Source of the DNA: a virus
IMG/VR virus record: IMGVR_UViG_3300044953_000377
Span: 62,001 to 126,000 of that record
Reading direction: 5' to 3' (one strand)
Length of the DNA stretch: 64,000 nt
Position 1 is the first letter of the stretch. Every line of letters starts with the position of its first letter. Shown here piece by piece: positions 20,770-59,662 of this stretch. The position numbers and the translations under genes are program-made. The notes under the pieces were generated by a model. It saw only the letters and a program-made list of their open reading frames with translations, had not been told where the DNA came from and did no database searches.

Positions 20770-21461
20770 ATGGAACACAATGATTATTATATCTATGTCT
20801 ATTTAGATCCAAGAAAGGGAGGTAAATATTCTTATGATGGGTTTGATTTTGATTTTGATCCATTTTATATAGGAAAGGGTAGAAATCACAGATTGAGAAT
20901 ACATTTACTCAAAGTCAAAAGGGGTAATTATAAGAATCTTCCTAAATATCATGTTATAAAAAAAATATTAGATGATGGATTAGATCCTATATTAATTAAA
21001 TATAAGGAAGGACTTTTAGAGAAAAATGCCTTTGATATTGAAAAAGATATGATCAAAAAAATAGGGAGGAAAGATCTAAACAATGGACCTTTAAGAAATT
21101 TCAGTAACGGAGGAGAGGGGAACGGAGATAGAAAGTTTACAGATGAGCATTGAATTAACTTGAGTTTATCTAGAAAAGGAAAAGTATCGGATAAACAAAG
21201 AGATCATTTAAAATCTATACACGAAAAAATGAAAGGTAATAAAAGAACTCCCGGATTTAAGTTTTCTGAAGAAAGTAAGAAAAATTGGCAGAGTCTCATT
21301 ATAAGCCGGTTTTGCAGATAGGAAATAATAATGAAATATTAAACGAATTTCAATCTATAAAAGATGCAGAAAAATATATTGGCGTGTCGATTAAGAAAGT
21401 ATTAAAGGGGGAGGGTAATACTGCAGGGGGATTCTTCTGGAAGTATGAAAATAATTATTAG
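20770..21461 (+). pseudogene. Decayed GIY-YIG homing endonuclease between uvsY and uvsW
   Basis: The ATG at 20770 opens a 127-codon frame with a GIY-YIG signature: YIYVYLDPR near residue 7 and FYIGKGRNHRLRIH near residue 35. An in-frame TGA at 21151-21153 stops it. The same frame then continues with a NUMOD3-like basic helix region (LSLSRKGKVSDKQ). Near 21297 the frame shifts, and the last part reads as a NUMOD1-like DNA-binding module (FQSIKDAEKYIGVS...GGFFWKYENNY) ending at 21461. A full-length gene would be a SegA-type GIY-YIG nuclease with NUMOD modules. It carries two lesions, so it is probably dead, although the N-terminal catalytic part could still be made. It sits 2 bases before uvsW. 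Confidence 0.8.
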
Positions 21462-21463
21462 TA

Positions 21464-22474
21464 ATGTTAACATTTGTAGTAAGTGAGGATATTAATTGGT
21501 TAAGTTTAGTAGATTATTCTGAAGATTTTGAGAGAAAGCAGATAGAGATATCTTTAACTAAAAAAATACACAACCATTTCTTTCATCCACTTGTTAAGAA
21601 AAAACATTGGGATGGTTCAATATGTTTTGTTGATAAAAAATTACCGGTATGGAGAGTTCCTATAGGTCTTTGGTCTGAGGTATATCAGATATGTGAAAAA
21701 TATAAGATAGAATTAAACATTGAGGGATTAGAGAGATTAATAGATTCAGGTTTCACTCTAGAATCTTATACTGATTGGTGTAACGAGTTCTTTAAAGATG
21801 GTGTCGGTGGAGATCCTAATAAAATGCCTAGAGATTACCAAATAGAAACAGCTTGGAAGATAATAAAATTTAAACTTTCAGTTTCAGAAGTTGCAACAAG
21901 CTCAGGTAAAACATTAATTGCTTTTATGGTAATGGCTTACCTAAAAGAGGTAATGAAAGTTAAGAAATTCTTAATGATTGTTCCTAATACGAATCTTGTT
22001 ATACAAGGATCTGAAGATTTTGAAGAATATGGACTTCAAAAATTAGAGGACTGTGAAATTCAACAGATACATGGAGCAAATAAGAAAAAAATATCTGGGG
22101 GATTAATGATAGGGACATATCAATCCCTTGTAAAGATGGATCCTGAATTTTTTGAAGATGTTGAAGCTGTGTTTGTTGATGAGTGTTTGCATCCAGATTC
22201 TTTAATAACTATATATGATGGATCTCTAAAAAAAATAAGCGATGTTAAAATAGGTGAAATGGTTTTAACTGTAAATAATAAAACAGGGGATATGGAATCT
22301 AAGCCGGTTGATTTTGTTTATCATAATATGTCTAAAGATAATCAAATGTATGAGATAGAGACTGAATGCGGTAAGATATTAAAGGTCACGGGTAATCATA
22401 AATTGAGACTTTCTAATGGTGAATGGAAAGGAGTGGAAGATTTGAAAGATTCTGATGAGCTTTGGGATATATAA
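21464..22474 (+). CDS. uvsW-N: UvsW helicase N-terminal fragment fused to split-intein N half
   Basis: 336 residues. Residues 1-240 are the N-terminal part of an SF2 helicase like T4 UvsW, with the Walker A motif in VATSSGKTLIAF (~residue 145) and the start of the Walker B/DExH box in AVFVDE (residues 235-240). From Cys241 the sequence is an intein N half of 96 residues: block A CLHPDSLITIYDG, block B VTGNHKL, ending at the TAA inside a GATATATAA motif. The helicase resumes after the intein C half at 23431 with CHQAQS, which would restore DECH. The two halves together would give a 513-residue helicase, close to T4 UvsW (503). Trans-splicing is inferred from the preserved terminal residues. 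Confidence 0.9.
   Translation: MLTFVVSEDINWLSLVDYSEDFERKQIEISLTKKIHNHFFHPLVKKKHWDGSICFVDKKLPVWRVPIGLWSEVYQICEKYKIELNIEGLERLIDSGFTLESYTDWCNEFFKDGVGGDPNKMPRDYQIETAWKIIKFKLSVSEVATSSGKTLIAFMVMAYLKEVMKVKKFLMIVPNTNLVIQGSEDFEEYGLQKLEDCEIQQIHGANKKKISGGLMIGTYQSLVKMDPEFFEDVEAVFVDECLHPDSLITIYDGSLKKISDVKIGEMVLTVNNKTGDMESKPVDFVYHNMSKDNQMYEIETECGKILKVTGNHKLRLSNGEWKGVEDLKDSDELWDI
22466..22474 (+). promoter_or_regulatory. GATATATAA motif overlapping the intein-N stop codon
   Basis: The last codons Asp-Ile-stop of the UvsW intein N half are the motif itself. It lies 13 bases before the ATG (22488) of the nested endonuclease gene. It is a candidate independent promoter for that gene. Confidence 0.5.
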
Positions 22475-22487
22475 TATTAAAAGAGCC

Positions 22488-23324
22488 ATGTGTAGCAATC
22501 AAATCAAAAAACAAATTAATGAATATATAATCAAGAACAAAAAATTTATAACCCAATATAGAATGAGGGAAATATTAGATAAGGAAAAAAGAGCCTTATC
22601 TAATATTAGACTTTTTTCCGGTATAGATATTCCAGATACAGTGGGCACTGTTAAATCGCTTTTATGTTTAATCGATGATAATAATGGTATATGTGAGATG
22701 GATGGATGTATTAACGAAAAGTCAAGGGATTCTGGTAGATGGGTGCTAAGAAAGTTTTGTAGTAGAAAGTGTGCAGATAGAGATTTTGCATTGAAACAAT
22801 CTGGATTAGGAAATTCTTTTCATAAGATATCAGAGGAATCTAGGAAAAGTATGGGCGAAAAAATATCCGAAAAAATTAATAAGAAAATACTAAAAGGTGA
22901 ATTCACACCGAATATAACTAATTCTTGGTTAAATAGCAAGATATCTGTTAATATTAATGGCAAATTAAAATTTGTAAGATCATCTTGGGAAGCATATTTT
23001 TATATATTAAACCCAGAACTTAGTTATAAATTAATAAGGATTCCTTATTTAGACAAAAAAACAAAAAAACCTAGGAATTATATAACGGATTTTTGTGATT
23101 TTACTAATAAGATAATATACGAGATAAAACCTAAGACAAAAATTAAAGATAATCCTGAAAAAATAGAGAGCGCTAAAGAATGGTGTTCTCTAAATTTCTA
23201 TTCTTATGTGATAATAACACAAGATTGGATAATAGAGAGATATAATAAGAAATTATTAGAGAATCAACCGGAGGGTGAAAGAATATCGATGCTTATTGAA
23301 AAAATGATAAAATATGAAAATTAA
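22488..23324 (+). CDS. Nested homing endonuclease of the uvsW split intein (PD-(D/E)XK-like)
   Basis: Start taken at ATG 22488, just after the GATATATAA motif; an in-frame ATG at 22455 would overlap the intein half. 278 residues. There is a Cys cluster resembling a treble-clef zinc finger (CEMDGC...FCSRKC, ~residues 66-95). A C-terminal nuclease-like core follows, with SSWEAYFYIL (~residue 167), an Asp in YITDFCDF (~202) and EIKPK (~213): a Glu...Asp...Glu-x-Lys order typical of PD-(D/E)XK enzymes. It ends 11 bases inside the uvsW C-terminal fragment. It probably cleaves intein-less uvsW alleles and spreads the split intein. Nuclease family is by motif order only. Confidence 0.7.
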   Translation: MCSNQIKKQINEYIIKNKKFITQYRMREILDKEKRALSNIRLFSGIDIPDTVGTVKSLLCLIDDNNGICEMDGCINEKSRDSGRWVLRKFCSRKCADRDFALKQSGLGNSFHKISEESRKSMGEKISEKINKKILKGEFTPNITNSWLNSKISVNINGKLKFVRSSWEAYFYILNPELSYKLIRIPYLDKKTKKPRNYITDFCDFTNKIIYEIKPKTKIKDNPEKIESAKEWCSLNFYSYVIITQDWIIERYNKKLLENQPEGERISMLIEKMIKYEN

Positions 23325-24252
23325 ATCTATAAGAAAGATTAACAACGCTGAGGATGTTTATAATTTGAGAATAAAATCTGATGATGGAAATAATCATAAT
23401 TATATAGCTAATGGAATCCTTGTAAGCAATTGTCACCAAGCTCAGAGTGCATCTATAAAGAAGGTTGTTGCAGTATGTAAAGATTCTAAATGGAGATTTG
23501 GATTATCTGGAACTCTAGCAAACAAAAACACCGCTGAATATCTAACAATCCAACAGTTTTTAGGTCCTCTAATAATGGAGATATCTCCCAAGTTTTTATT
23601 TGATAACAAATATGCTACTCCGGTTTCAATTAAGATTGTAAAAATGGACTGGATGGATGACGAGATAAAGGAAAAGCTATCATCCCTTAAAGAGAACAAG
23701 ACTGAAATGGAAGGTAACGAGATTTTTAATTTGGAAAGAAAATTAGTTGTTGGCTCAGATAAAAGACTTAATTATATAATAGATTTTGTTCTCAAAACAT
23801 CAAAGAACTCATTAATACTTTTCCAATCTGTTGGAGAAGGTTACGGTAAGAAAATTTATGATGGAATAAGAGAAAGAACTAATGATAGAGAAGTCTACTA
23901 TATTGATGGAGATACAGATCCTGACAAGAGAGACATATTTACTAAGAGGATGGAAGAAGGGGTTAACAAAATAATGGTTGCTTCTTTTGGTACTATGTCC
24001 ACTGGTATATCTGTAAAAAATATTCATAATATATTCTTAACCGAATCATATAAGTCGGAGGTACTTATAAAACAGAGTTTAGGAAGGGGCATGAGATTGT
24101 TCGAGGGTAAGGAAAAAGTTAACATAATAGATTTCGTAGATGATTTTGCTTGGGGCGGAAAAGAGAACTATTTGCTAAAGCATTCGAAGGAAAGAATAGA
24201 AATTTATAAAAGGGAACATTTCGATTATAAAATTTATAATGTCAAAATTTAG
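23314..24252 (+). CDS. uvsW-C: UvsW helicase C-terminal fragment with split-intein C half
   Basis: 312 residues. Residues 1-39 are an intein C half (MKIKSIRKINNAEDVYNLRI, then NYIANGILVSN) with the block F/G pattern and terminal Asn39. Cys40 is the +1 nucleophile and begins the C-extein CHQAQS, completing the DECH helicase box. The helicase C-terminal RecA domain follows, including a SGT-type motif III (GLSGTLANKN) and motif VI (QSLGRGMRLF, near residue 260). In T4, UvsW unwinds recombination and R-loop intermediates and drives the origin-to-recombination switch. The start overlaps the endonuclease gene by 11 bases. Function requires splicing or association with the N-terminal fragment. Confidence 0.9.
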   Translation: MKIKSIRKINNAEDVYNLRIKSDDGNNHNYIANGILVSNCHQAQSASIKKVVAVCKDSKWRFGLSGTLANKNTAEYLTIQQFLGPLIMEISPKFLFDNKYATPVSIKIVKMDWMDDEIKEKLSSLKENKTEMEGNEIFNLERKLVVGSDKRLNYIIDFVLKTSKNSLILFQSVGEGYGKKIYDGIRERTNDREVYYIDGDTDPDKRDIFTKRMEEGVNKIMVASFGTMSTGISVKNIHNIFLTESYKSEVLIKQSLGRGMRLFEGKEKVNIIDFVDDFAWGGKENYLLKHSKERIEIYKREHFDYKIYNVKI

Positions 24253-35441: not shown

Positions 35442-35747
35442 TTAGATTGATTCTTTCTTTTTGAGTTGTTCTAGATAGTCTTTCCAGACAAGTCCACCCT
35501 CTTTAATTCCTGCTTTTTGAAATTTATGGAGCTCTGCTCTTTTAGACATTATATAGGAAGCTATAATTGCGTCCTTCAATTCTATTTCTTTTCGATCTAG
35601 CATTTCCTGAACCTTTTTAATTGATTTCATTGCTTCATCCCTGTTAGCAAATCTAAGGCCTGGGGTATACTTCCTTTCTCCGTCAAAAGGATTTACGTCT
35701 TTTAGGTATACATCCTCGAATAATTTGAAAGATAGAATTTTTTTCAC
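35442..35747 (-). CDS. Tagged small helical protein on the minus strand (101 aa)
   Basis: Reads on the minus strand from a GTG (35745-35747): MKKILSFKLFEDVYLKD. The start is very similar to that of the protein at 60118 (MKKIVSFKLFENGKF). The rest is charged and helical (EAMKSIKKVQEMLDRKEIE). A minus-strand AATATATAA lies 3 bases upstream, a variant of the recurrent promoter-like motif. It is one of only two minus-strand genes in the window. Function unknown; packaging is inferred from the tag. Confidence 0.55.
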   Translation of the reverse strand: MKKILSFKLFEDVYLKDVNPFDGERKYTPGLRFANRDEAMKSIKKVQEMLDRKEIELKDAIIASYIMSKRAELHKFQKAGIKEGGLVWKDYLEQLKKKESI

Positions 35748-35799
35748 CTATTATATATTCCTTTTTGAAACCTCTTCCCTACAACACTATAAAATAGAT

Positions 35800-37206
35800 A
35801 TGATCATAGATATTGAGAATACAGGAAATGGATTATCTGTTTCACATTATACAGAGGAAGGAGAAGTTAATTTATTGAAAATTCAGGTACCAAAGCATCT
35901 ACAATTTGTTTGGCAAAAAACATTGGAGAACGACAAAAGTAAAGATAAGGAATGGAGGTCGTGGGACAATTTTCCTGTGAAGAAAGTTAACACTAGTAAG
36001 TTTGACAAGTATAGGGTGGTAGAAATATTAGAAGCTATAGATCCTGAAATAACAAAACCCCTTTGGGATTACCAAACTCCAAAAAAATACTTTGTCGATA
36101 TAGAGGTTGAAATCACGGATAATCGTGCAGATTCTTTAGATAATGAAAACTCTAAGAACCGGGTGCTTTCAATAGGAATGGCTTCTTCACAGGGAAAGAT
36201 CCTTGTTATTGGACTTGAAGATATTCTTCAGGATAAAATATTAAAAATAGAGAAAAGGATAAAGGAGCACTTTAAAGATCAAGCAGGGGAATGGACTTTT
36301 AATTATAGGAAGTTTGAGACTGAGTTTGATATGCTTTATACTTTCTTCTCTAAGCTAGTTCCTAAGATGCCTTTGATAACTGGGTGGAACTGGTTTGGAT
36401 ATGACTGGCCTTATCTTATCAATAGAGCAAAAAGATTAGGAATAGATCCAAAAATAGCTTCACCTAGTGGAATTCTCTTAGGAATGAATCAGATTCCGAT
36501 GCACATTTTAATGGTTGACTATCTTGACATCTATAAGAAATGGGATAGGGTCATAAAGATCAGAGAATCTAACTCATTAGACTACGTTGCTAATCAAGCT
36601 ATAGGAATAAAAAAGATTTCTTATAGTGGAACATTAAAAGATTTATACGAATCAGATTTTGAGACATTTATCTTTTATAACGCAGTCGACTGTGCTTTAG
36701 TCCATTATATAGATAAAAGGTTGGACACCCTTTCAACTTTCTTTAAAATTGCCGAAGTTAGTAGAGTGGAAATAAACAGAGCTTTATCCCCGGTATGGAC
36801 TACTGAGGTACTGATGCTAAGAAAATTCTTGGAAAGAAAAAGAGTTATTGTCAACGAGAGAAAAGGAGAATCTCATGTAAAGTTTGAGGGAGCTTATGTT
36901 AAGAAGCCAGAGAAGGGATTATACGAATGGATTGCTTGTTTTGACTTTGCCTCCCTATATCCTAATACAATGATGCAATGGGGAATTTCTCCTGAGGCTT
37001 ACATAGGAAAAAATCTAAAGGAAATACCTGAAGGAGCAATAAAGACCTCCTCGGGAGCAGTTTTTTATAATAAAGATGGGCAAGAACCTATACTTAGAGA
37101 AATATTGAAAGGACTTTATTCTCAAAGAAAAGCTACTAAGAAAAAATATTTTGAGTGTGAAAAGGAAATAGAAAAAATTAAAAAAGAAATAAAATTAAAA
37201 TCATAA
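35800..37206 (+). CDS. 43A: DNA polymerase family B, N-terminal fragment (exonuclease plus start of palm/fingers)
   Basis: Start set at ATG 35800 (MIIDIENTGNGLSVSHYTEE). 468 residues. Exo I is in KKYFVDIEVEI (~residue 95), Exo II region in WNWFGYDWPYLINR (~residue 200) and polymerase motif A in DFASLYPNTMMQWGISPE (~residue 388). The chain ends in a helix (KKYFECEKEIEKIKKEIK), which corresponds to the fingers hairpin of T4 gp43. Motifs B and C are absent here; they are encoded at 56812-59662. No intein sequence ends this fragment, so it must join the rest non-covalently. Known split gp43 genes exist in some T4-like phages. It is followed 3 bases later by dUTPase. Confidence 0.9.
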   Translation: MIIDIENTGNGLSVSHYTEEGEVNLLKIQVPKHLQFVWQKTLENDKSKDKEWRSWDNFPVKKVNTSKFDKYRVVEILEAIDPEITKPLWDYQTPKKYFVDIEVEITDNRADSLDNENSKNRVLSIGMASSQGKILVIGLEDILQDKILKIEKRIKEHFKDQAGEWTFNYRKFETEFDMLYTFFSKLVPKMPLITGWNWFGYDWPYLINRAKRLGIDPKIASPSGILLGMNQIPMHILMVDYLDIYKKWDRVIKIRESNSLDYVANQAIGIKKISYSGTLKDLYESDFETFIFYNAVDCALVHYIDKRLDTLSTFFKIAEVSRVEINRALSPVWTTEVLMLRKFLERKRVIVNERKGESHVKFEGAYVKKPEKGLYEWIACFDFASLYPNTMMQWGISPEAYIGKNLKEIPEGAIKTSSGAVFYNKDGQEPILREILKGLYSQRKATKKKYFECEKEIEKIKKEIKLKS

Positions 37207-37709: not shown

Positions 37710-38572
37710 ATGAAAGCTTTTGTATATCTTTGGACTAATAGTAAAAATCTTATGTTGAATCTCATATAGGAGATATGGATGATGGATACATAGGATCTGG
37801 TAAATATTTTATTAATTCATATAATAAAAATCCTGAATTTTTTTCAAGAGAGATATTGGAGGTTATAGAAGGTCCATACGTAAAGGAAAGAATAAAAGAA
37901 AGATAGGAATATTATTTAGATCTTTATAAGGTTTCAAAAGATCCTCTATATTATAACATAAGTAATAGGTATTTTGGAGGCGATGTTTATTCTGGATTAA
38001 GCGAGGAGGATAAAAAAAATATGATTAATAAAACAGTCGAAAAAACTAATGAAGATAGAATTAATAATCCGGAAAAATGGAAAATGATATACAGTAAAAT
38101 GTCCAAATCAAAAAGGGATAAATCATTACCAGTTAATCAGTTTGATAGTGAAGGAGTATTTATTAATTCTTATTCATGTATAGAAGAAGCACATGAAATA
38201 ACTGGAATATCTAAAGGAAATATCCATTCCGCTATAACAGGTAAGAGAAATAGTGCAGGTGGATTTAGATGGTCGTTTACAAAAGAACCGAATAACATTG
38301 TTAGTAAAAAATGTGGAAGGCCTAATGGAATTAAGAATAAGATTAAGATTGAAAGATCACATACTAATATAAGAAAAATGCAGGTAACTCAATATGATTT
38401 GTTTGGTAATTTAATTAAGATTTGGGAATCAGCATCCGAAGCATCTAAAGAATTGGCCCTAAGCTCCGGATGTATAACACATTTTGTTAATGGAAGAAAA
38501 CCAAAGTCTGGAAACTATGGTGGATTTATATGGGAAAAAGGAAATTATATCACATATACTATATACGAGTAA
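37710..38572 (+). pseudogene. Decayed GIY-YIG homing endonuclease near the polymerase split
   Basis: Opens with MKAFVYLWTNSKNL, the GIY part. One base seems lost around 37751; restoring a T gives YVESHIGDMDDGYIGSGKYF, the YIG part. After that the frame runs to a TAG at 37903-37905 and continues to 38572. The end part (from ATG 38021) carries two NUMOD1-like modules (SCIEEAHEITGISKGNIHSA and SASEASKELALSSGC). The gene thus has a frameshift and a nonsense codon. It stands 0.5 kb from the polymerase N-terminal fragment, so it may be the element that once split the polymerase. The 183-residue DNA-binding end is still open. Confidence 0.8.
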
Positions 38573-44917: not shown

Positions 44918-45277
44918 ATGGATTTTGATGATTTTTATATAGCAAAAATCGGAGACCATACTTTCATATTAGAAGATTGCAAAGACTTTCCAAAAGGGCT
45001 TTCAGAAAGAGAGCATCTCCTCGAAAATGAGGGGATGCTTTTTAAGTTTAATGATCCTGGACATAGATCTTTTCATATGAAAGGATGTCTAATACCTTTG
45101 GATATTATATTCATAAAAGGGGGTAAGATACAAAAAATATATCATAACTGTAATCCTTGCGAGCTTAATGAGTGCGAGCGGTTCGAACACGAGGATGCTG
45201 ATACTGTAGTTGAACTTATGGGAGGTACATGCAAGAAAAATAGAATCAATGAGGGTTTAATTTATAGGCTTATGTGA
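44918..45277 (+). CDS. DUF192 family protein (119 aa)
   Basis: Contains the family pattern GLSEREHLLENEGMLFKF (~residues 28-45), then FHMKGCLIPLDIIFIKGG and a late VVELMGGTC. DUF192 proteins are small, often secreted or envelope proteins of bacteria and archaea with unknown activity. Here no signal peptide is present. The 3' end overlaps the convergent homing-endonuclease gene by 8 bases. A terminator-like hairpin lies within the conserved segment. Confidence 0.75.
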   Translation: MDFDDFYIAKIGDHTFILEDCKDFPKGLSEREHLLENEGMLFKFNDPGHRSFHMKGCLIPLDIIFIKGGKIQKIYHNCNPCELNECERFEHEDADTVVELMGGTCKKNRINEGLIYRLM

Positions 45278-46430
45278 TTTCTTGATTACTTTTAATTTTT
45301 TCTATGATTTTATTAATTGTTAATTCTATTGTTTTTTCATTAGAATCGTCAGAAAATATTTCTATTACATCAAATCCTAATCTTTCCGCTATTTTATTTT
45401 TATAAACATCAAGATCTCTTTTTTCCTCTGCATTTAATCCCATGAAATTCCATTTGTCCCATTTATTCTTTTCCCATTTGGGATTGGGATGGTATCTTTT
45501 TCCGTGATATTCTATAATTATTTTTAATTTTGGTATAGTAAAATCATAAAAAAATATTTTTTTTGAATCCTTATCATATAAAAAATATTCCTTAGATCCT
45601 GATATCCCCCAATATATCTCATTTATTTGTAAATACCTTCTAATTTTTTTGTATATTTTTTTAAATAGAATTAGGGATTCCTTAGATGTGTATGTATTGG
45701 AGCATCTTTTAATTATTGTTTCTGTGTATTTTTTATTTCCCTCTTCTTGTCCGTATCTGCTTATAAATCCATTAAGAGATTGAGAATTACTTAGATTTTT
45801 ACACATATTTTCATATCTTATCGTGCCCTCTATTTTTCCATATTTCTTAATTATTTTTTCTAGATCGAAAGTTTTCTGTAATTCTGAAACTTTTTTCTTT
45901 GCATCTTCCTCGGATATTTTTTCTTTTTTCATCCAGTATTCATATTGATTCCAAGTGACCCCATGATATTTTTTCCTTTTGGCTGAATTTTCTTTCTGTG
46001 TATCTTTTATTTTTAAAATTGCTTCTTTTTCAGATAGCCCCCTCTCTATCCAATATTCAATATTAAATTTTCTTTGTGATTTTATTTTATATTCTGCTTC
46101 CTCCTTGGTGTAATTGATCCCGGTCTTAGGATTTATTTTATTTTTCCAGTAATCTATTTGCATAGGACTTCCGTTCGGTATATTATTTACACGATTTTCT
46201 TGCCTTTTCAACAAGGAATCCTCTCTACTCCATCCTCTTTGTTCCCAGTATGTAATAGTAAATTTTCCAACTTTCATAAATCCTTTGTCCATTCTAAATT
46301 TTGATAATATCTTATTAATGGATTGGCCGGTTTTAGGAGATTCTTTTTCTATTATAATTCTTAACTCCTCCTTATATTTTGGTGGAAGATCTATTAAAAA
46401 TTTTTCTAATTCTATGTTTGATTTATTCAT
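45270..46430 (-). CDS. Free-standing VSR-like homing endonuclease (386 aa)
   Basis: Minus strand, start at 46430 (MNKSNIELEKFLIDL). It contains several short repeats of the type SEEDAKKKVSELQ / SEKEAILKIKDTQ / SREDSLLKRQENR, which look like modular DNA-binding helices, plus KYGKIEGTIRYE and RYGQEEGNKKYTE. The C-terminal ~110 residues form a VSR/EDxHD-type nuclease: FFYDFTIPKLKIIIEYHG, KRDLDVYKNKIAERLGFDVIEIF. It shares module style with the polymerase-intein endonuclease at 57552. It lies just upstream of, and divergent from, the topoisomerase large-subunit gene, which may be its target or linked site. A GATATATAA motif is on its own strand. Confidence 0.75.
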   Translation of the reverse strand: MNKSNIELEKFLIDLPPKYKEELRIIIEKESPKTGQSINKILSKFRMDKGFMKVGKFTITYWEQRGWSREDSLLKRQENRVNNIPNGSPMQIDYWKNKINPKTGINYTKEEAEYKIKSQRKFNIEYWIERGLSEKEAILKIKDTQKENSAKRKKYHGVTWNQYEYWMKKEKISEEDAKKKVSELQKTFDLEKIIKKYGKIEGTIRYENMCKNLSNSQSLNGFISRYGQEEGNKKYTETIIKRCSNTYTSKESLILFKKIYKKIRRYLQINEIYWGISGSKEYFLYDKDSKKIFFYDFTIPKLKIIIEYHGKRYHPNPKWEKNKWDKWNFMGLNAEEKRDLDVYKNKIAERLGFDVIEIFSDDSNEKTIELTINKIIEKIKSNQEIT

Positions 46431-53320: not shown

Positions 53321-53881
53321 GTGGACAAAAGGATAACAATTTCAGATCAGATAAATCAGGATTACCGTAAGTACGCATTATACGTTATTCAAAGCAGGGG
53401 CATCCCGAATTTCTACGATGCACTAACCCCTGTACAAAGATTAATTCTTCAGAATTCCCCAAGCATTTTTAAAAAAACTGTTGGTGTTATAGGTGGGGTT
53501 TTTAGTACTGGCCTATATCATCACGGAGACTGCGTTTCTGGGGATACAAAAATAGAATTGGCAGATGGGGGTCAGATTAGAATAGAAGACTGGTACGATA
53601 AAAATCCGGGTTGTGATCTTTTAGTTTCTTGTATAGATACAGATACAGGTGAAAAGACTTTTGGAGTTGGTCATTCACCTAGGATAGGACAAATTAATGA
53701 CGAATTAATTGAGCTCGAATTAGAGAGTTGCGAAATAATTAAATGTACTAGGAATCATCCCTTTTATGTAAATTCTACTTGGATTAAGGCCGAGGATCTT
53801 GAGGAGGGAATGGATATAAAAGATTTTTATCATCACGCTGGATATATAAATATAAACATCCATGATGATAAAGAAATGTAA
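53321..53881 (+). CDS. 52-N: Topoisomerase medium subunit N-terminal fragment with split-intein N half
   Basis: GTG start (MDKRITISDQINQDYRKYAL). Residues 1-70 match the start of GyrA/gp52-type subunits (ALTPVQRLILQNSP) up to GLYHHGD. From Cys71 (53531) an intein N half of 116 residues follows: block A CVSGDTKIELADG, block B CTRNHPFYV. The natural sequence would read HHGD-SS(MAQAISK) after splicing, as in the HGDS motif of GyrA-type enzymes. The frame stops at 53881 after crossing into the nested endonuclease gene. The catalytic tyrosine lies in the C-terminal fragment. Trans-splicing is inferred. Confidence 0.9.
   Translation: MDKRITISDQINQDYRKYALYVIQSRGIPNFYDALTPVQRLILQNSPSIFKKTVGVIGGVFSTGLYHHGDCVSGDTKIELADGGQIRIEDWYDKNPGCDLLVSCIDTDTGEKTFGVGHSPRIGQINDELIELELESCEIIKCTRNHPFYVNSTWIKAEDLEEGMDIKDFYHHAGYININIHDDKEM
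53841..53849 (+). promoter_or_regulatory. GATATATAA motif before the nested topoisomerase-intein endonuclease
   Basis: Inside the end of the intein N half, 12 bases before the ATG (53862) of the endonuclease gene. This is the same arrangement as in the two other fractured genes. Confidence 0.5.
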
Positions 53882-54731
53882 ATCGTGCGGGAATGATTTT
53901 GAGTCAGATCTAAATCTTAACCAGTATTGCACAACAAAATGTAGATCTCGGGATAAATTCTTCAAAATACAAAACGAGGGAAAGTCTTTTAATGTATGGA
54001 AAAAAAATTACGAGAAATACCCCGAATTTTATAATTCCCTTTCTAGTTATAAAGATAGGTATAAGAATAAGTGCTTCATCTGCGGGAAAGAATATGAAAA
54101 TTTTAGTATGTGTTGCTCTAAGGAATGTTCTTTAGCAATGAAAAATTATTCTACTTTTTTAACTACTGGATCCAATCATAATTTATCTAGGAATTCAATA
54201 TCAAGAAAGAATATGGAGAAATCTTTATATGAGAAATATGTTGTCAATAATGTTTTTTCTAGAGATGATGTTTTAAATAAGCTTAAGGAAACATGGGTTA
54301 AAAAATATGGATATATTAATCTTTCTAAGGTTGATTATATAAAAAATAAAAAAAGATCAACTGCAGAAAAAAATGGATTTTGGGCTCCTAAAGAAACGAT
54401 GGATTTAAAAAATATTTATGACGAGAACGTTTATAATATTACATGGAGTCAAATGAAAAGGTTTTCTACAATTAAATTTGGCAATGATATATGGAAAAAG
54501 ATAAATGATTCTAAAAATCTTAAACAATCTGAATGGCTTACAGTTGATCATAGATATTCAAGATCTAAAGGATTTATAGATGGTATATCTCCAGAAATAA
54601 TAGGACATATATGTAATCTTGAGATTATTAATTTCGGGGATAATCGTAAAAAAAATAGTAAATGCTCGGTTACAATGGACCAATTAATCAAGGAGATAAA
54701 TGAATTTGATAAAATAGTTTATAAAAAATGA
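53862..54731 (+). CDS. Nested HNH-like homing endonuclease of the topoisomerase split intein
   Basis: 289 residues. There are two Cys clusters that look like zinc fingers: CKSCGNDF...YCTTKC and CFICGKEY...CCSKEC. The C-terminal part shows LTVDHRYSRSKGF, then HICNLEIINFGDNRKKNSK, the order of an HNH/His-Me nuclease (Asp-His, then Asn, then basic). It overlaps the intein N fragment by 20 bases and the intein C fragment by 4 (ATGA). It would home the split intein into intein-less topoisomerase genes. Its fold differs from the nucleases nested in uvsW and polymerase. Confidence 0.75.
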   Translation: MMIKKCKSCGNDFESDLNLNQYCTTKCRSRDKFFKIQNEGKSFNVWKKNYEKYPEFYNSLSSYKDRYKNKCFICGKEYENFSMCCSKECSLAMKNYSTFLTTGSNHNLSRNSISRKNMEKSLYEKYVVNNVFSRDDVLNKLKETWVKKYGYINLSKVDYIKNKKRSTAEKNGFWAPKETMDLKNIYDENVYNITWSQMKRFSTIKFGNDIWKKINDSKNLKQSEWLTVDHRYSRSKGFIDGISPEIIGHICNLEIINFGDNRKKNSKCSVTMDQLIKEINEFDKIVYKK

Positions 54732-56050
54732 GGATAAAGAAAATTAATAGGATAAAGTTAGAATCCCCTTCTGCTTTTTATGATATTACTGTAGAAAAAT
54801 ATCACAATTTTATCATAGGTGACTCGAAAATAGTTTGTCATAATTCATCAATGGCTCAAGCAATATCCAAACTTGCGAGACCTTTTTCTTGTGCTGAACA
54901 GATATTATTGGGTGATGGATTTTTTGGAAGTCCAGTTAATCCTGTACCTTCAGCTCCTAGATATACTCAGGTAAAGATCTCCAGTAAATACAAAGATATA
55001 ATAGAAAAATATAAGGATCTAAATGTTCCCAATGAGGAGGGTGGATTTGATTGGATCCATGTTGACTATCCTGTGGGTCTTTCCACTCACATTGTTGGGA
55101 TAGCAGTTGGATATAAGTCTAATGTGCTTCCCCGAAAGCCTGAAGACATAGTTGCATACTTAACTGGAAATAAATCTAAGAAATTAAAACCATATTTTAG
55201 AGGATTTAAAGGAAAGGTAACAAAAATGGATTCTCTTAAATCTGCTTGGCTTATAGAAGGGGACACTGAAATAGATGTTACAACTAGAACATTCAAGATA
55301 AACTCTATATCACCCCTTCAGAGATATGAATCTTTTTTTATTAGGCTCAACAACATTCTGGAAAGAAAATCCCTTAATTACAAGATGGATAATTTCTCAA
55401 CTGATGAAGTTAAGATCACGATAAAGTTTAGATGCACAGATCAGGAATTTAAGGAAGTCTCAGATCTAATAGCTAAAGAAACAAAACAGATAGTTACTGA
55501 AAATATAGTTTTCGTGCGGGACGGATCAGTCTTGGAATATGATTGTATAGAAGATTATTTAGAAGACTTCATTGTACACAGGGAAAGAACTATTTTAAAA
55601 AGATATGAGAGGGATCTACTTTATCTTGACGATGAATTAGAATTCTTGGAAGCCAAGGTTAAATTTCTTATTTTTATGCAGGAAAAGAAGAGAGGTGATG
55701 ATGAGGTTTCAGCATTTCTTAGTGGTTATAAAAAGGAAATATCCAGAAGACTAGAATCCATATCTTTAATAAAGCTAACAAAAGAGGAAATAATTAAGAC
55801 AAAAGAAGAAATTAATTCCATAAAATCCGATATAAAGATTAAGAACCAAGAAATAAAGAAACAAAGGGATAGAGTTAAAGTTGTTGAAAAAGAAAATTCT
55901 TTATTAAAAAAGAAAACGACTTCAAGAACAACTTCACTCTTAGGAGAAGTAAAAGAAGAATTTCATAATGGAATAAGAATATTTGATCCAGAAGAAGAAA
56001 TAATAGAAGAAGTAGAACAAGAAAACGAATTAAATATAGAAAATGAGTAA
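54728..56050 (+). CDS. 52-C: Topoisomerase medium subunit C-terminal fragment with split-intein C half
   Basis: 440 residues. Residues 1-39 are an intein C half (FYDITVEKYHNFIIGDSKIV, then CHN) ending in Asn39. Ser40 (54845) is the +1 residue of the C-extein SSMAQAISKLARPF. The catalytic Tyr is probably in APRYTQVKI (~residue 79), matching the AARYTE region of GyrA. The C-terminal ~100 residues are coiled-coil and charged. Combined with the 70 N-terminal residues the enzyme would have ~471 residues, near T4 gp52 (442). It cuts and rejoins DNA with the large subunit of 46526. The stop overlaps the next gene by 8 bases. Confidence 0.9.
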   Translation: MRIKKINRIKLESPSAFYDITVEKYHNFIIGDSKIVCHNSSMAQAISKLARPFSCAEQILLGDGFFGSPVNPVPSAPRYTQVKISSKYKDIIEKYKDLNVPNEEGGFDWIHVDYPVGLSTHIVGIAVGYKSNVLPRKPEDIVAYLTGNKSKKLKPYFRGFKGKVTKMDSLKSAWLIEGDTEIDVTTRTFKINSISPLQRYESFFIRLNNILERKSLNYKMDNFSTDEVKITIKFRCTDQEFKEVSDLIAKETKQIVTENIVFVRDGSVLEYDCIEDYLEDFIVHRERTILKRYERDLLYLDDELEFLEAKVKFLIFMQEKKRGDDEVSAFLSGYKKEISRRLESISLIKLTKEEIIKTKEEINSIKSDIKIKNQEIKKQRDRVKVVEKENSLLKKKTTSRTTSLLGEVKEEFHNGIRIFDPEEEIIEEVEQENELNIENE

Positions 56051-56811: not shown

Positions 56812-57534
56812 ATGGAAGAAGTAGATTACATGTCAATGAGCTTGGAAGAGCTCAATAAAAAACTGCAGGAATATCAACAAAAATCCTCCGACTTTTATAA
56901 CACTGAACAAGGTATTAAATTAACTCTTAACAGTATATATGGAGCGACAGGAAACCAGTACTTTGCACTTTTCAATCCCGATGTAGCAGAAAGTGTAACT
57001 CTACAAGGACAGGACATATGGAGATTTGCTGAGAAGATAATTAACAAGTACTTCACCGAGATGTGGCACCTTGATAGTGAATTACACGAAAAAATGGGGG
57101 TCGCTAATGTTAGGCCTCTAAATTTAGATTTTGTTGTCTACGGGGATACTGATTCGGTTTTTTCCAGATCTAAGATAATGATAATGAATAACTTGGGTGA
57201 AAAAAAAGAAATTGAAATTGGGGAATTTTTTAATGAATTAGCTGAATCGGAGGATATTTTATTAGACGATAAGGGTAATCATATTATAGAAACAAAAGGG
57301 TTTTTCTCGCTTAATTCAATTGATGAAGAATTAAGATATTCCCCGATAAAAAAAATAATAAGACACAAAGTAAGAAAGCCTAAATGGAAAATAACTACAG
57401 AATCTGGTAAAGAAGCTATAGTAACTAATGACCACTCCTTGACTGTTTTTAGATTCGGTAAAAAAATTCATATTAAGCCTTCTGAAATAAATTTAGAAAC
57501 TGATAAAATTTTATCAGTTGATGCTGATATATAA
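56812..57534 (+). CDS. 43B-N: DNA polymerase middle fragment (motifs B and C) with split-intein N half
   Basis: 240 residues. The first 30 are the second fingers helix (LEELNKKLQEYQQKSSD). Then polymerase motif B is in TLNSIYGATGNQYF (~residue 38) and the start of motif C in FVVYGDTD (residues 107-114). Ser115 (57154) starts an intein N half of 126 residues (SVFSRSKIMI...), with block B AIVTNDHSLTVF. The C-extein resumes at 58835 with SNYINLG, which restores DTDS. The insertion point equals the pol-c intein site of archaeal B-family polymerases. The N-terminal half of the enzyme is encoded 19.6 kb upstream. Confidence 0.9.
   Translation: MEEVDYMSMSLEELNKKLQEYQQKSSDFYNTEQGIKLTLNSIYGATGNQYFALFNPDVAESVTLQGQDIWRFAEKIINKYFTEMWHLDSELHEKMGVANVRPLNLDFVVYGDTDSVFSRSKIMIMNNLGEKKEIEIGEFFNELAESEDILLDDKGNHIIETKGFFSLNSIDEELRYSPIKKIIRHKVRKPKWKITTESGKEAIVTNDHSLTVFRFGKKIHIKPSEINLETDKILSVDADI
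57526..57534 (+). promoter_or_regulatory. GATATATAA motif overlapping the polymerase intein-N stop
   Basis: Asp-Ile-stop of the intein half forms the motif, 17 bases before the nested endonuclease ATG (57552). Confidence 0.5.
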
Positions 57535-57551
57535 TATATAAAAAATATTAT

Positions 57552-58694
57552 ATGGAGACGCAAATATTGAAGTCGTTGGTTAAAAGGTATAATAAAGAAA
57601 GAACCCGTGAAAATTGGGATCTTTTAGAAACTCATATAGAGGATAAGCATTTTTGTAAGGACTGTGGTGGATCTATATTTTATGAGAATTCGGTAATTAG
57701 AGTTTCTAGGGAAGGTTCTTTATATTATGATCCTACTATGACCTCTTGTAAAACATATAAAAAAATAGAGGATAGTATTTACTATCTAAATGTTTGTCGG
57801 GATTGTATTGGTAAGAAGTTCCCAGAATATCTTAAAATGAATCGATCCAGAGTTTTCAATGTGATGAATAAAATTACTATATACGCTTTTGATATTCCAG
57901 AATATGAGGCTAAAAAATTTACCAAAACCACTGCAGTAACGCTAGAAAACTTAACTAATAAATATGGAGAATCAGAGGGATTAAAAAGATGGGAAAGATA
58001 TAGAAAATTACAATCTCTAACAAATACTTTTGAATACAAGAAAGAAAAATATGGGTGGGGAGAAAAAGAATTCAACGATTTTAATAAATCACGTGCAGTT
58101 ACTCTTAAAAATATGATTAAAAAATATGGGGAAGAGAAGGGGGTCCGCATTTTTAATGAATACCTAGAAAAACAAAAGGTCAACGGAAAATCAATTTCTT
58201 GGTTCTTAGAAAAACACGGGGAGGAGATAGGTAGAAGAATTTTTAAAGAAATGCTACAAGGTAAGCTAAAAGGCATTAACTGTGTTGTAAATTCTAAACC
58301 AGCGGGAGAATTTTTTGCTAGAATTGAAAATCTTCTTGAAGATAGATTTGAAATTTATTATTTTAATAAAAATTTCGAATTTGAAGTTGTAATAGAAGAA
58401 ATCGGAAATGTTTATTATCTCGATTTTTTTATTAAAGAATTAAATGTTTGTATAGAATTTTTCAGTGATTATTACCATGCTAATCCAAAAAAATATAAAG
58501 ATCCTGAGGCACTAATTAAATTTTCTAGGATTCATAAGGTTTCTGAAATTTGGGATAGGGATAAAAAAAGAATTCAAAATCTTGAAAAATATAAAGCAAT
58601 AAAAACTATAGTAGTTTGGGAATCCGACTATTATAAAAACAAAGATAACGAGGATTTTTACAAGAAAATAATTAAACAATGTATAGAGAAATAG
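57552..58694 (+). CDS. Nested VSR-like homing endonuclease of the polymerase split intein
   Basis: 380 residues. A Cys pair CKDCGGSIF and a later CRDCIGKKFP suggest a zinc-binding N-terminal part. The middle has repeats of the form NKYGESEGLKRWERY and KKYGEEKGVRIFNEY, DNA-binding-like modules also seen in the protein at 45270. The C-terminal ~110 residues form a VSR/EDxHD-like nuclease: VYYLDFFIKELNVCIEFFSD, IWDRDKKRIQNLEKYKAIKT, IVVWESDY. It overlaps the C-terminal polymerase fragment by 16 bases. It would drive homing of this intein. Confidence 0.75.
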   Translation: METQILKSLVKRYNKERTRENWDLLETHIEDKHFCKDCGGSIFYENSVIRVSREGSLYYDPTMTSCKTYKKIEDSIYYLNVCRDCIGKKFPEYLKMNRSRVFNVMNKITIYAFDIPEYEAKKFTKTTAVTLENLTNKYGESEGLKRWERYRKLQSLTNTFEYKKEKYGWGEKEFNDFNKSRAVTLKNMIKKYGEEKGVRIFNEYLEKQKVNGKSISWFLEKHGEEIGRRIFKEMLQGKLKGINCVVNSKPAGEFFARIENLLEDRFEIYYFNKNFEFEVVIEEIGNVYYLDFFIKELNVCIEFFSDYYHANPKKYKDPEALIKFSRIHKVSEIWDRDKKRIQNLEKYKAIKTIVVWESDYYKNKDNEDFYKKIIKQCIEK

Positions 58695-59662
58695 AGTACC
58701 AATCAAAATTTGAAAAGATTAAATCGTGTGAATGTATTGGTGAGTTCGAGAATGATTATGTTTACGATTTAGAGATTGACGAGGAGGGATATGACAATCA
58801 AACTTTCTTTGCTAATCACATTTTAGTTCATAATTCCAATTACATAAATCTTGGTGCTGTTATGGATTCTTGTGAATTTGATTATGATCCTTTTGATTTT
58901 GTAAAAAATTTAAATGACTATAGACTTAAGGACTATATAAAGAAGTGCTATGACATCTATGCTAAAAAATGGAATACTGAGAACTATCAAGACTTTGAAC
59001 TGGAAAGTTTATCTTATGCAGGTATATTCTTAGGAAAAAAGAAATACGTACTTCACATAGCTTGGGAAGACCCAAACAAGGATCTATTTCCCAAGCTATC
59101 TAAAATTAAATCAACCGGTATAGAACTAGCTCAAGGAGGTACTGCTCCTTTTGCAAGGGAAAAACTTACTTTCCTTCTTAGACACATATTTGAAAAGGGT
59201 AAAGGGTTTGATATTAGGGAATTTGTAAAGATACTGAAGGATATCAAGAATGAATTCAAAGTACAAAGTCCAGATCAAATATCAATAGGTACTTCAGTTA
59301 ACAATATAGAAAATTTCATAGTAAATGATACAAGTAAATTAGAAGTTGCTAAGGGATGTCCAATGCACGTTAGAGCTGCTGGGTATCATAACTATATCTT
59401 GAATAATTCTAAACACAAAGCAAAGTACAGCTTGATAAGATCCTCGGAGAAGATAAAATACTATTACGTTAAAGTTAACAAAGAAAGGGAGAATAACGTA
59501 TTCGGATATCTTAATGGTTCTTATCCCTACGAGTTTGCTCCCCCGGTCGATTTTGACGAGCAGTTTAATCGTGTTATCCTGGATCCAATAAATAGATTCA
59601 TTGAAGCTATGGGATATACCCCACTTTCTCCTAATCTTTTACTAGTTAGAGCTCTTTTTTAA
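58679..59662 (+). CDS. 43B-C: DNA polymerase C-terminal fragment with split-intein C half
   Basis: 327 residues. Residues 1-52 are the intein C half (YVYDLEIDEEGYDNQTFF, then ANHILVHN) ending with Asn52. Ser53 (58835) is the +1 residue. The C-extein carries the rest of the palm and the thumb: FLGKKKYVLHIAWEDPN (the KKRY-like motif), TGIELAQGGTAPFAR, and a C-terminal end LLLVRALF that may be the clamp-binding peptide. Summed over the three fragments (468 + 114 + 275) the polymerase would be about 857 residues, near T4 gp43 (898). Activity needs both protein splicing and non-covalent pairing. Confidence 0.9.
   Translation: MYREIEYQSKFEKIKSCECIGEFENDYVYDLEIDEEGYDNQTFFANHILVHNSNYINLGAVMDSCEFDYDPFDFVKNLNDYRLKDYIKKCYDIYAKKWNTENYQDFELESLSYAGIFLGKKKYVLHIAWEDPNKDLFPKLSKIKSTGIELAQGGTAPFAREKLTFLLRHIFEKGKGFDIREFVKILKDIKNEFKVQSPDQISIGTSVNNIENFIVNDTSKLEVAKGCPMHVRAAGYHNYILNNSKHKAKYSLIRSSEKIKYYYVKVNKERENNVFGYLNGSYPYEFAPPVDFDEQFNRVILDPINRFIEAMGYTPLSPNLLLVRALF

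What the first reader, a model, noticed from the sequence alone, without database searches (positions are those of the whole stretch)
56812..59662. Polymerase split by an intein at the archaeal pol-c site (YGDTD/S) with a VSR-like nuclease between the halves
Seen: N-extein ends YGDTD, intein starts Ser115, C half ends HN before SNYINLG. Known: archaeal B-family polymerases carry inteins at the same motif C position. Inference: the same active-site triplet has been targeted in unrelated genomes, and splicing is needed to rebuild the catalytic Asp motif.
Basis: partly seen in the sequence, partly recalled or inferred. Interest (0 to 1): 0.9.

Follow-up and report, generated by a model that had tools for sequence, protein, structure and literature searches.

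The report
Phage DNA polymerase broken by split intein
A bacteriophage DNA polymerase gene is cut at its active-site motif by a split intein (a self-removing protein insert in two halves) with a DNA-cutting gene between them; this is a new example of an arrangement already described and already shown to splice in related phages.

Summary
gp43B1 (56812-57534) ends YGDTD, then a 126-aa intein N-half starting at Ser115. A Vsr-like nuclease ORF follows (57552-58694). The third ORF (58679-59662) carries a 52-aa intein C-half ending HN, then SNYINLG. Fifteen related phage contigs have the same gene uninterrupted at that codon, so the insert is real and precise. All residues expected of a Ser1/Ser+1 split intein and of a Vsr-type nuclease are present.

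It is a new member of a known kind. Aeromonas phage Aes144 is annotated with the same layout (gp43A / gp43B1+N-intein / VSR / gp43B2+C-intein), and the Aes123 PolB1 split intein from such phages trans-splices in vitro (structure 9HTH).

The archaeal pol-c site is YGD|TDS, two residues upstream of this one. The break leaves both aspartates on the N-half, so splicing does not rebuild that motif. Splicing cannot give a single-chain polymerase, because gp43A is a separate gene 20 kb away.

Extras: the genome holds two more fractured genes (topoisomerase, UvsW-like helicase). The same nuclease family serves both motif-C insertion points, and its spread among polymerases is patchy, as expected of a homing element.

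The parts
56812..57153 (+). gp43B1 N-extein (finger helix, motif B NSIYGATGN, motif C up to YGDTD)
   Evidence: PF00136 positions 136-242, E=5.8e-15; phrog_1918 E=1.8e-23 and phrog_27191 matching extein plus intein half, E=4.8e-23
57154..57534 (+). Split intein N-half (126 aa + stop): Ser1, NX motif RH (IIRHKV), N3 motif TNDH; no Cys
   Evidence: PF14890 E=1.6e-6; PDB 9HTH E=3.6e-9; invariant S115, R184, H185, T205, D207, H208 in alignment A3; Cys count
57552..58694 (+). Vsr-like (EDxHD-type) predicted homing endonuclease, 380 aa, free-standing ORF between the intein halves
   Evidence: phrog_22677 E=1.7e-44; profile hits Vsr 1odg/1vsr/1cw0 E=0.0025; D291, E302, H309, D337 invariant across 17 homologues; AlphaFold2 pLDDT 82, Foldseek 1vsr prob 0.97, I-Bth0305I TMt 0.66 (E-values weak)
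58679..58834 (+). Split intein C-half (52 aa) ending HILVHN; its ORF overlaps the nuclease ORF by 16 bases
   Evidence: PF14890 119-155 E=0.0029; conserved VYDLEI...FFANHILVHN block in all element-bearing relatives
58835..59662 (+). gp43B2 C-extein (Ser+1 SNYINLG..., palm end and thumb)
   Evidence: phrog_1918 E=5.7e-40; 97% aa identity to intein-less L009
35725..37206 (+). gp43A: polymerase N-terminal half (exonuclease, motif A, first finger helix), separate gene with no intein; start codon not determined
   Evidence: PF03104 E=1.2e-9 and PF00136 16-147 E=2.4e-16; phrog_2062 residues 26-491, E=1.9e-78

Best explanation
A fractured DNA polymerase gene. A Ser1/Ser+1 class-1 split intein of the Aes123 PolB1 type sits at YGDTD|S in motif C of the gp43B half of a T4-type B-family polymerase. 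The homing endonuclease domain that cis-inteins carry at the split point is replaced by a separate Vsr-like endonuclease gene. Shown: anatomy, precise insertion, intact catalytic residues, homology to a biochemically active split intein, patchy distribution. Inferred: the two precursors (gp43B1-IntN and IntC-gp43B2) associate and trans-splice through oxyester chemistry into gp43B, which pairs with gp43A as the working polymerase. Also inferred: the nuclease cuts intein-free motif C alleles in co-infecting phages, so that repair copies IntN-nuclease-IntC into them.
For: Anatomy. Fifteen empty-site relatives, nine of them 89-97% identical in the C-extein. IntN matches the Aes123 PolB1 intein 9HTH, E=3.6e-9; that intein is reported to trans-splice, with Asp-1, Ser1 and Asn159 at its junctions. 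Aes144 is annotated with the same gp43A/gp43B1/VSR/gp43B2 layout. Residues for Ser1 inteins are present, including the NX-motif His described in PMC10189870. Vsr catalytic core and fold. Mobility: element-bearing exteins are not a clade (AU p=1.4e-85 for window+L024-26; p=0.0024 for L024-26). Local divergence: a 200-bp window centred on the insertion site has 76% identity to L009 against 92.6% overall, among the lowest 0.5% of windows.
Against: No splicing or cleavage data for this phage. IntC is longer (52 aa) than the 39 aa of Aes123 and holds two cysteines, at non-catalytic positions. The C-half Pfam match is weak on its own. The intein N-half model was poor (pLDDT 48). The divergence trough at the pol site is partly intrinsic, since intein-free pairs also dip there; at the two other fractured genes it is not exceptional. 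Deep clades of intein, nuclease and extein trees agree, so long vertical descent also plays a part.
Confidence: 0.92

Rival explanations
1. Gene in pieces without splicing: the polymerase works as three non-covalent chains (gp43A, gp43B1, gp43B2) and the intein halves are remnants.
For: gp43A/gp43B already work as separate chains in T4-like phages: 43A and 43B of phage 25 co-purify (PMC2988022). L028/L029 carry the same nuclease family in a polymerase broken just before motif C with no intein.
Against: Ser1, NX His, N3 His and terminal HN|S are all conserved across very diverged phages, which non-functional remnants would not keep; a homologous intein trans-splices in vitro.
Confidence: 0.06
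2. A true member of the archaeal/giant-virus pol-c intein allele, shared through ancient transfer.
For: Same motif C. L037 and Klebsiella phage KP13-7 carry related split inteins plus nuclease exactly at YGD|TDS.
Against: The window insertion is two residues downstream with Ser+1, not Thr+1; the best solved match is the phage Aes123 intein, the archaeal PI-PkoII intein only E=0.048.
Confidence: 0.04
3. Assembly or frame artefact, or an RNA intron rather than an intein.
For: Single metagenomic record.
Against: Independent records L024-L026 show the same junctions; no intron RNA by Rfam; junction residues are intein-specific and the same genome has two further genes with the same layout.
Confidence: 0.01

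Closest known systems
Aeromonas phage Aes144 gp43A / gp43B1 / VSR / gp43B2 (JN377900) and the Aes123 PolB1 split intein (PDB 9HTH; PMC11923092, PMC13014065)
   Same: Same host gene and break (xxDTD|S ... HN|S), gp43A already separate, split intein with nuclease ORF between the halves, no Cys in IntN, Ser1/Ser+1, Asp-1
   Different: 34% (IntN), 50% (IntC) and 35% (nuclease) aa identity; gp43A is adjacent in Aes144 but 20 kb away here; IntC is longer and has two cysteines
Tenacibaculum phage PTm1 (AP019524): 'intein-containing split DNA polymerase precursor' / 'VSR endonuclease' / DNA polymerase
   Same: Same layout and same insertion point YADTD|S..HN|S; already annotated as such by its depositors
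   Different: IntN 46%, nuclease 31% identical
Prevotella Lak-A/B/C megaphages
   Same: Nuclease plus split intein at AGDTD|S in polymerase, read with TAG=Q
   Different: Unannotated in these records; recoded genome; extra sequence or ORF(s) before the C-half
Fractured genes (Dassa et al. 2009, NAR 37:2560; title from reference lists, content from memory)
   Same: Conserved DNA-metabolism enzyme broken by a split intein with a free-standing, often Vsr-like, endonuclease gene between
   Different: Paper not held here, so whether a motif-C PolB locus was among its loci was not checked
Archaeal / Nanoarchaeum / Mimivirus pol-c inteins
   Same: Motif C of a B-family polymerase; Ser1 chemistry; the Nanoarchaeum one is also split
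   Different: Inserted at YGD|TDS with Thr+1, two residues upstream (PMC549080)

Membership tests
Aes123 PolB1-type Ser1/Ser+1 split inteins of phage PolB | Inserted in PolB motif C with Asp-1, Ser1, terminal HN and Ser+1 (xxDTD|S ... HN|S) | tested here: met
Aes123 PolB1-type Ser1/Ser+1 split inteins of phage PolB | NX-motif His preceded by Arg/Lys and N3 TxxH | tested here: met
   RHKV and TxDHS invariant in 8 aligned homologues, IIRHKV and TNDHS in the window; motif from PMC10189870
Aes123 PolB1-type Ser1/Ser+1 split inteins of phage PolB | Sequence homology to a characterised member | tested here: met
   9HTH E=3.6e-9
Aes123 PolB1-type Ser1/Ser+1 split inteins of phage PolB | Cysteine-free | tested here: inconclusive
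   IntN has 0 Cys, IntC has 2 at non-catalytic positions; reported kin also have stray Cys
Aes123 PolB1-type Ser1/Ser+1 split inteins of phage PolB | Trans-splices | not testable with these tools
   needs expression of both halves
Fractured gene arrangement | One conserved enzyme in two ORFs each carrying one intein half, with a separate endonuclease ORF between | tested here: met
   uninterrupted orthologues
Vsr-like (EDxHD) homing endonucleases | Vsr-fold catalytic core with conserved D/E/H/D and profile similarity to Vsr | tested here: met
   weak but consistent fold match
Vsr-like (EDxHD) homing endonucleases | Cuts the intein-free allele | not testable with these tools
   no assay; patchy distribution is only consistent with it
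Archaeal pol-c intein allele | Insertion at YGD|TDS with Thr+1 | tested here: not met
   window is YGDTD|S; definition from PMC549080
T4-type split gp43 (gp43A/gp43B) | Polymerase divided within the fingers into two genes | tested here: met
   PF00136 positions 16-147 in gp43A and from 136 in gp43B1; phrog_2062 and phrog_1918

The most novel reading that the evidence does not exclude
One lineage of split intein plus Vsr-like nuclease occupies two different bonds of the same polymerase motif, YGDTD|S and YGD|TDS. L037 and phage KP13-7 use the second and nearly all others the first, and in the nuclease tree the two YGD|TDS members are not a clade (AU p=0.0019), with L037 beside L035 (YSDTD|S). 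The insertion point would then have moved by two codons, or inteins been swapped around a constant nuclease, linking the phage elements to the archaeal/giant-virus pol-c site.
Probability: 0.3. Interest if true: 0.6.

Novelty: new member of a known kind. Interest (0 to 1): 0.38.

Why it matters
It adds a clean natural case, with empty-site relatives up to 97% identical, to the small set of Ser1 split inteins useful in protein engineering. The phage carries three fractured replication genes with three different nuclease types (Vsr-like, TnsA-like, and one matching a homing-endonuclease PHROG). That makes one genome a test bed for how nucleases enter inteins and split them. The two neighbouring insertion points at motif C could be used to test how intein sites shift.

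Tried and rejected
Searching viral contigs with IntN alone found no relatives; the nuclease query found them. Scanning GTDB genomes with the nuclease found none. RNA intron: rejected. Identity with archaeal pol-c: rejected on the exact bond. AlphaFold of gp43B1-IntN alone was poor (pLDDT 48) and was not used. Foldseek of the nuclease gave no match at E<0.001, only Vsr/I-Bth0305I/PvuRts1I with moderate probability. Co-conversion around the topoisomerase and UvsW inserts was looked for, but by rank these troughs are not exceptional (13% and 31% of windows), so only the pol site is cited.

Full report
WHAT IS THERE. The window is 62001-126000 of a 148,217-bp virus record. Three consecutive plus-strand ORFs lie at 56812-57534, 57552-58694 and 58679-59662. 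The first encodes finger and palm segments of a B-family polymerase ending YGDTD, followed by an intein N-terminal half beginning SVFSRSK. The third encodes an intein C-terminal half ending FFANHILVHN, followed by SNYINLG and the rest of the polymerase. Residue numbering in the finding is right: Ser115 is intein residue 1.

THE POLYMERASE IS IN THREE PIECES, NOT TWO. PF00136 positions 16-147 lie in a separate gene at 35725-37206 (gp43A, with the exonuclease domain) and position 136 onwards in gp43B1. There is no intein at that first break: an intein-domain search of the whole record finds six halves, none of them there. The uninterrupted gp43B of the relatives starts at the same place, so the gp43A/gp43B division is older than the intein. 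Splicing could therefore yield gp43B, not a single-chain polymerase.

THE INSERTION IS PRECISE AND RECENT ENOUGH TO HAVE EMPTY-SITE RELATIVES. Fifteen viral contigs encode gp43B without interruption; nine are 89-97% identical to the window in the C-extein. Six others at 56-59% are also empty (three read YSDTDSNY). Aligned DNA shows that the window differs from them by an insertion exactly between the Asp codon (GAT) and the Ser codon (TCN). In the last 57 bp before the site, identity to L009 drops to 63%. A 200-bp window centred on the site has 76% identity, among the lowest 0.5% over 6.8 kb that average 92.6%. This is the pattern left by exon co-conversion. Intein-free pairs also dip somewhat there, so I treat it as suggestive.

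THE INTEIN. IntN matches the solved Aes123 PolB1 intein (9HTH) at E=3.6e-9. Other Ser1 inteins follow (TFIIB 2.6e-5), and the archaeal PI-PkoII intein only at 0.048. Ser1, the NX-motif RH, the N3 TxxH, terminal HN and Ser+1 are present and conserved in relatives. IntN has no cysteine; IntC has two at positions not involved in splicing. The Aes123 intein trans-splices in vitro and its Asp-1 contacts the N3 His (PMC13014065). The window has the same Asp-1.

THE NUCLEASE. The middle ORF belongs to phrog_22677. A 17-member alignment has invariant D291, E302, H309 and D337. Its profile finds the three E. coli Vsr structures at E=0.0025 over exactly that core. The AlphaFold model (pLDDT 82) has Vsr and the Vsr-like homing endonuclease I-Bth0305I among its fold matches, with weak E-values.

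DISTRIBUTION. The same nuclease plus split intein sits in polymerase motif C of viral contigs L024-L027 and L030-L035, of Lak phages, Tenacibaculum phage PTm1 and Aeromonas phage Aes144, all at xxDTD|S. Huge phage LR756500 has the intein at YIDTD|S with a different nuclease-like ORF between its halves. L037 and Klebsiella phage KP13-7 have it at YGD|TDS with Thr+1. L028/L029 have the nuclease breaking the gene just before motif C with no intein at all. Intein, nuclease and extein trees agree on deep clades. In the window's own neighbourhood, however, bearers and non-bearers are intermixed: holding the bearers together is rejected (p=1.4e-85 and 0.0024). That points to homing among related phages on top of long persistence. 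In the nuclease tree L037 pairs with L035 (YSDTD|S), and the two YGD|TDS bearers are not a clade (p=0.0019); the intein tree does not reject that clade (p=0.43).

COMPARISON WITH THE KNOWN. The closest described system is in Aeromonas T4-like phages: record JN377900 is annotated gp43A / gp43B1 with N-intein / putative VSR endonuclease / gp43B2 with C-intein. PTm1 depositors also named an 'intein-containing split DNA polymerase precursor'. Further PolB split inteins from phages and metagenomes are published as tools (CP21, LCGC14, GOM-OPS-1, PolB16). The general arrangement is that of fractured genes (Dassa et al. 2009; paper not held, content from memory).

MECHANISM. Shown: intact anatomy, precise insertion, homology to an active intein, patchy distribution. 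Inferred: trans-splicing joins gp43B1 to gp43B2; gp43A + gp43B is the working enzyme, by analogy with phage 25, where 43A and 43B co-purify (PMC2988022); the nuclease converts empty motif-C alleles. Because both aspartates of YGDTD stay on the N-extein, what splicing restores is the continuation of the motif-C hairpin and the thumb.

SURROUNDINGS. The same genome has two other fractured genes: topoisomerase IV subunit A/gp52 at YHHGD|SSMAQ (53321-56050, empty in 16 relatives) and a UvsW-like helicase at motif II VDE|CHQA (21464-24252). Of the 38 UvsW homologues checked, only L051 and L068 carry that insert. The three inserts have different nucleases.

Noticed in passing
53321-56050: Topoisomerase IV A/gp52-like gene is also fractured: IntN ORF, zinc-finger/homing-endonuclease-like ORF (53862-54731, phrog_3339 E=5e-6), IntC ORF; inserted at YHHGD|SSMAQ and empty in 16 relatives.
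   Followed up: partly
21464-24252: UvsW-like helicase is also fractured, at the motif II DE|CH, with a TnsA-like PD-(D/E)XK nuclease (22455-23324) between the halves; insert found in only two (L051, L068) of 38 homologues checked.
   Followed up: partly
45270-46430 (-): A second nuclease of the same phrog_22677 family, free-standing next to the topoisomerase large-subunit gene, 28% identical over 165 aa to the pol nuclease.
   Followed up: partly
L028:4941-6998 and L029: The same nuclease family breaks a phage polymerase just before motif C without any intein; the downstream piece starts at MQEKQLVTITGGDTDS.
   Followed up: no
L092 (LR756500.1):4654-6381: Split intein of this family at YIDTD|S, but the ORF between the halves is a different, 575-aa nuclease-like protein, as if the nuclease had been replaced.
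   Followed up: no
L039 (Nitratidesulfovibrio phage SRB7757):1458-6002: Odd split: 91-aa IntN and 146-aa IntC, each with a TxDH- or DEDH-like block and a KH NX-like motif only in the C part; looks like overlapping or duplicated HINT segments.
   Followed up: no
L036:2552-6269: Polymerase with the nuclease where the C-part reads VHN|DTDS only if a TAG is read through; insertion point and splicing ability unclear.
   Followed up: no
20770-21153 and 38021-38572: Further free-standing homing-type ORFs: GIY-YIG (PF22945 E=2.4e-10) and NUMOD1-type (E=6.4e-13).
   Followed up: no
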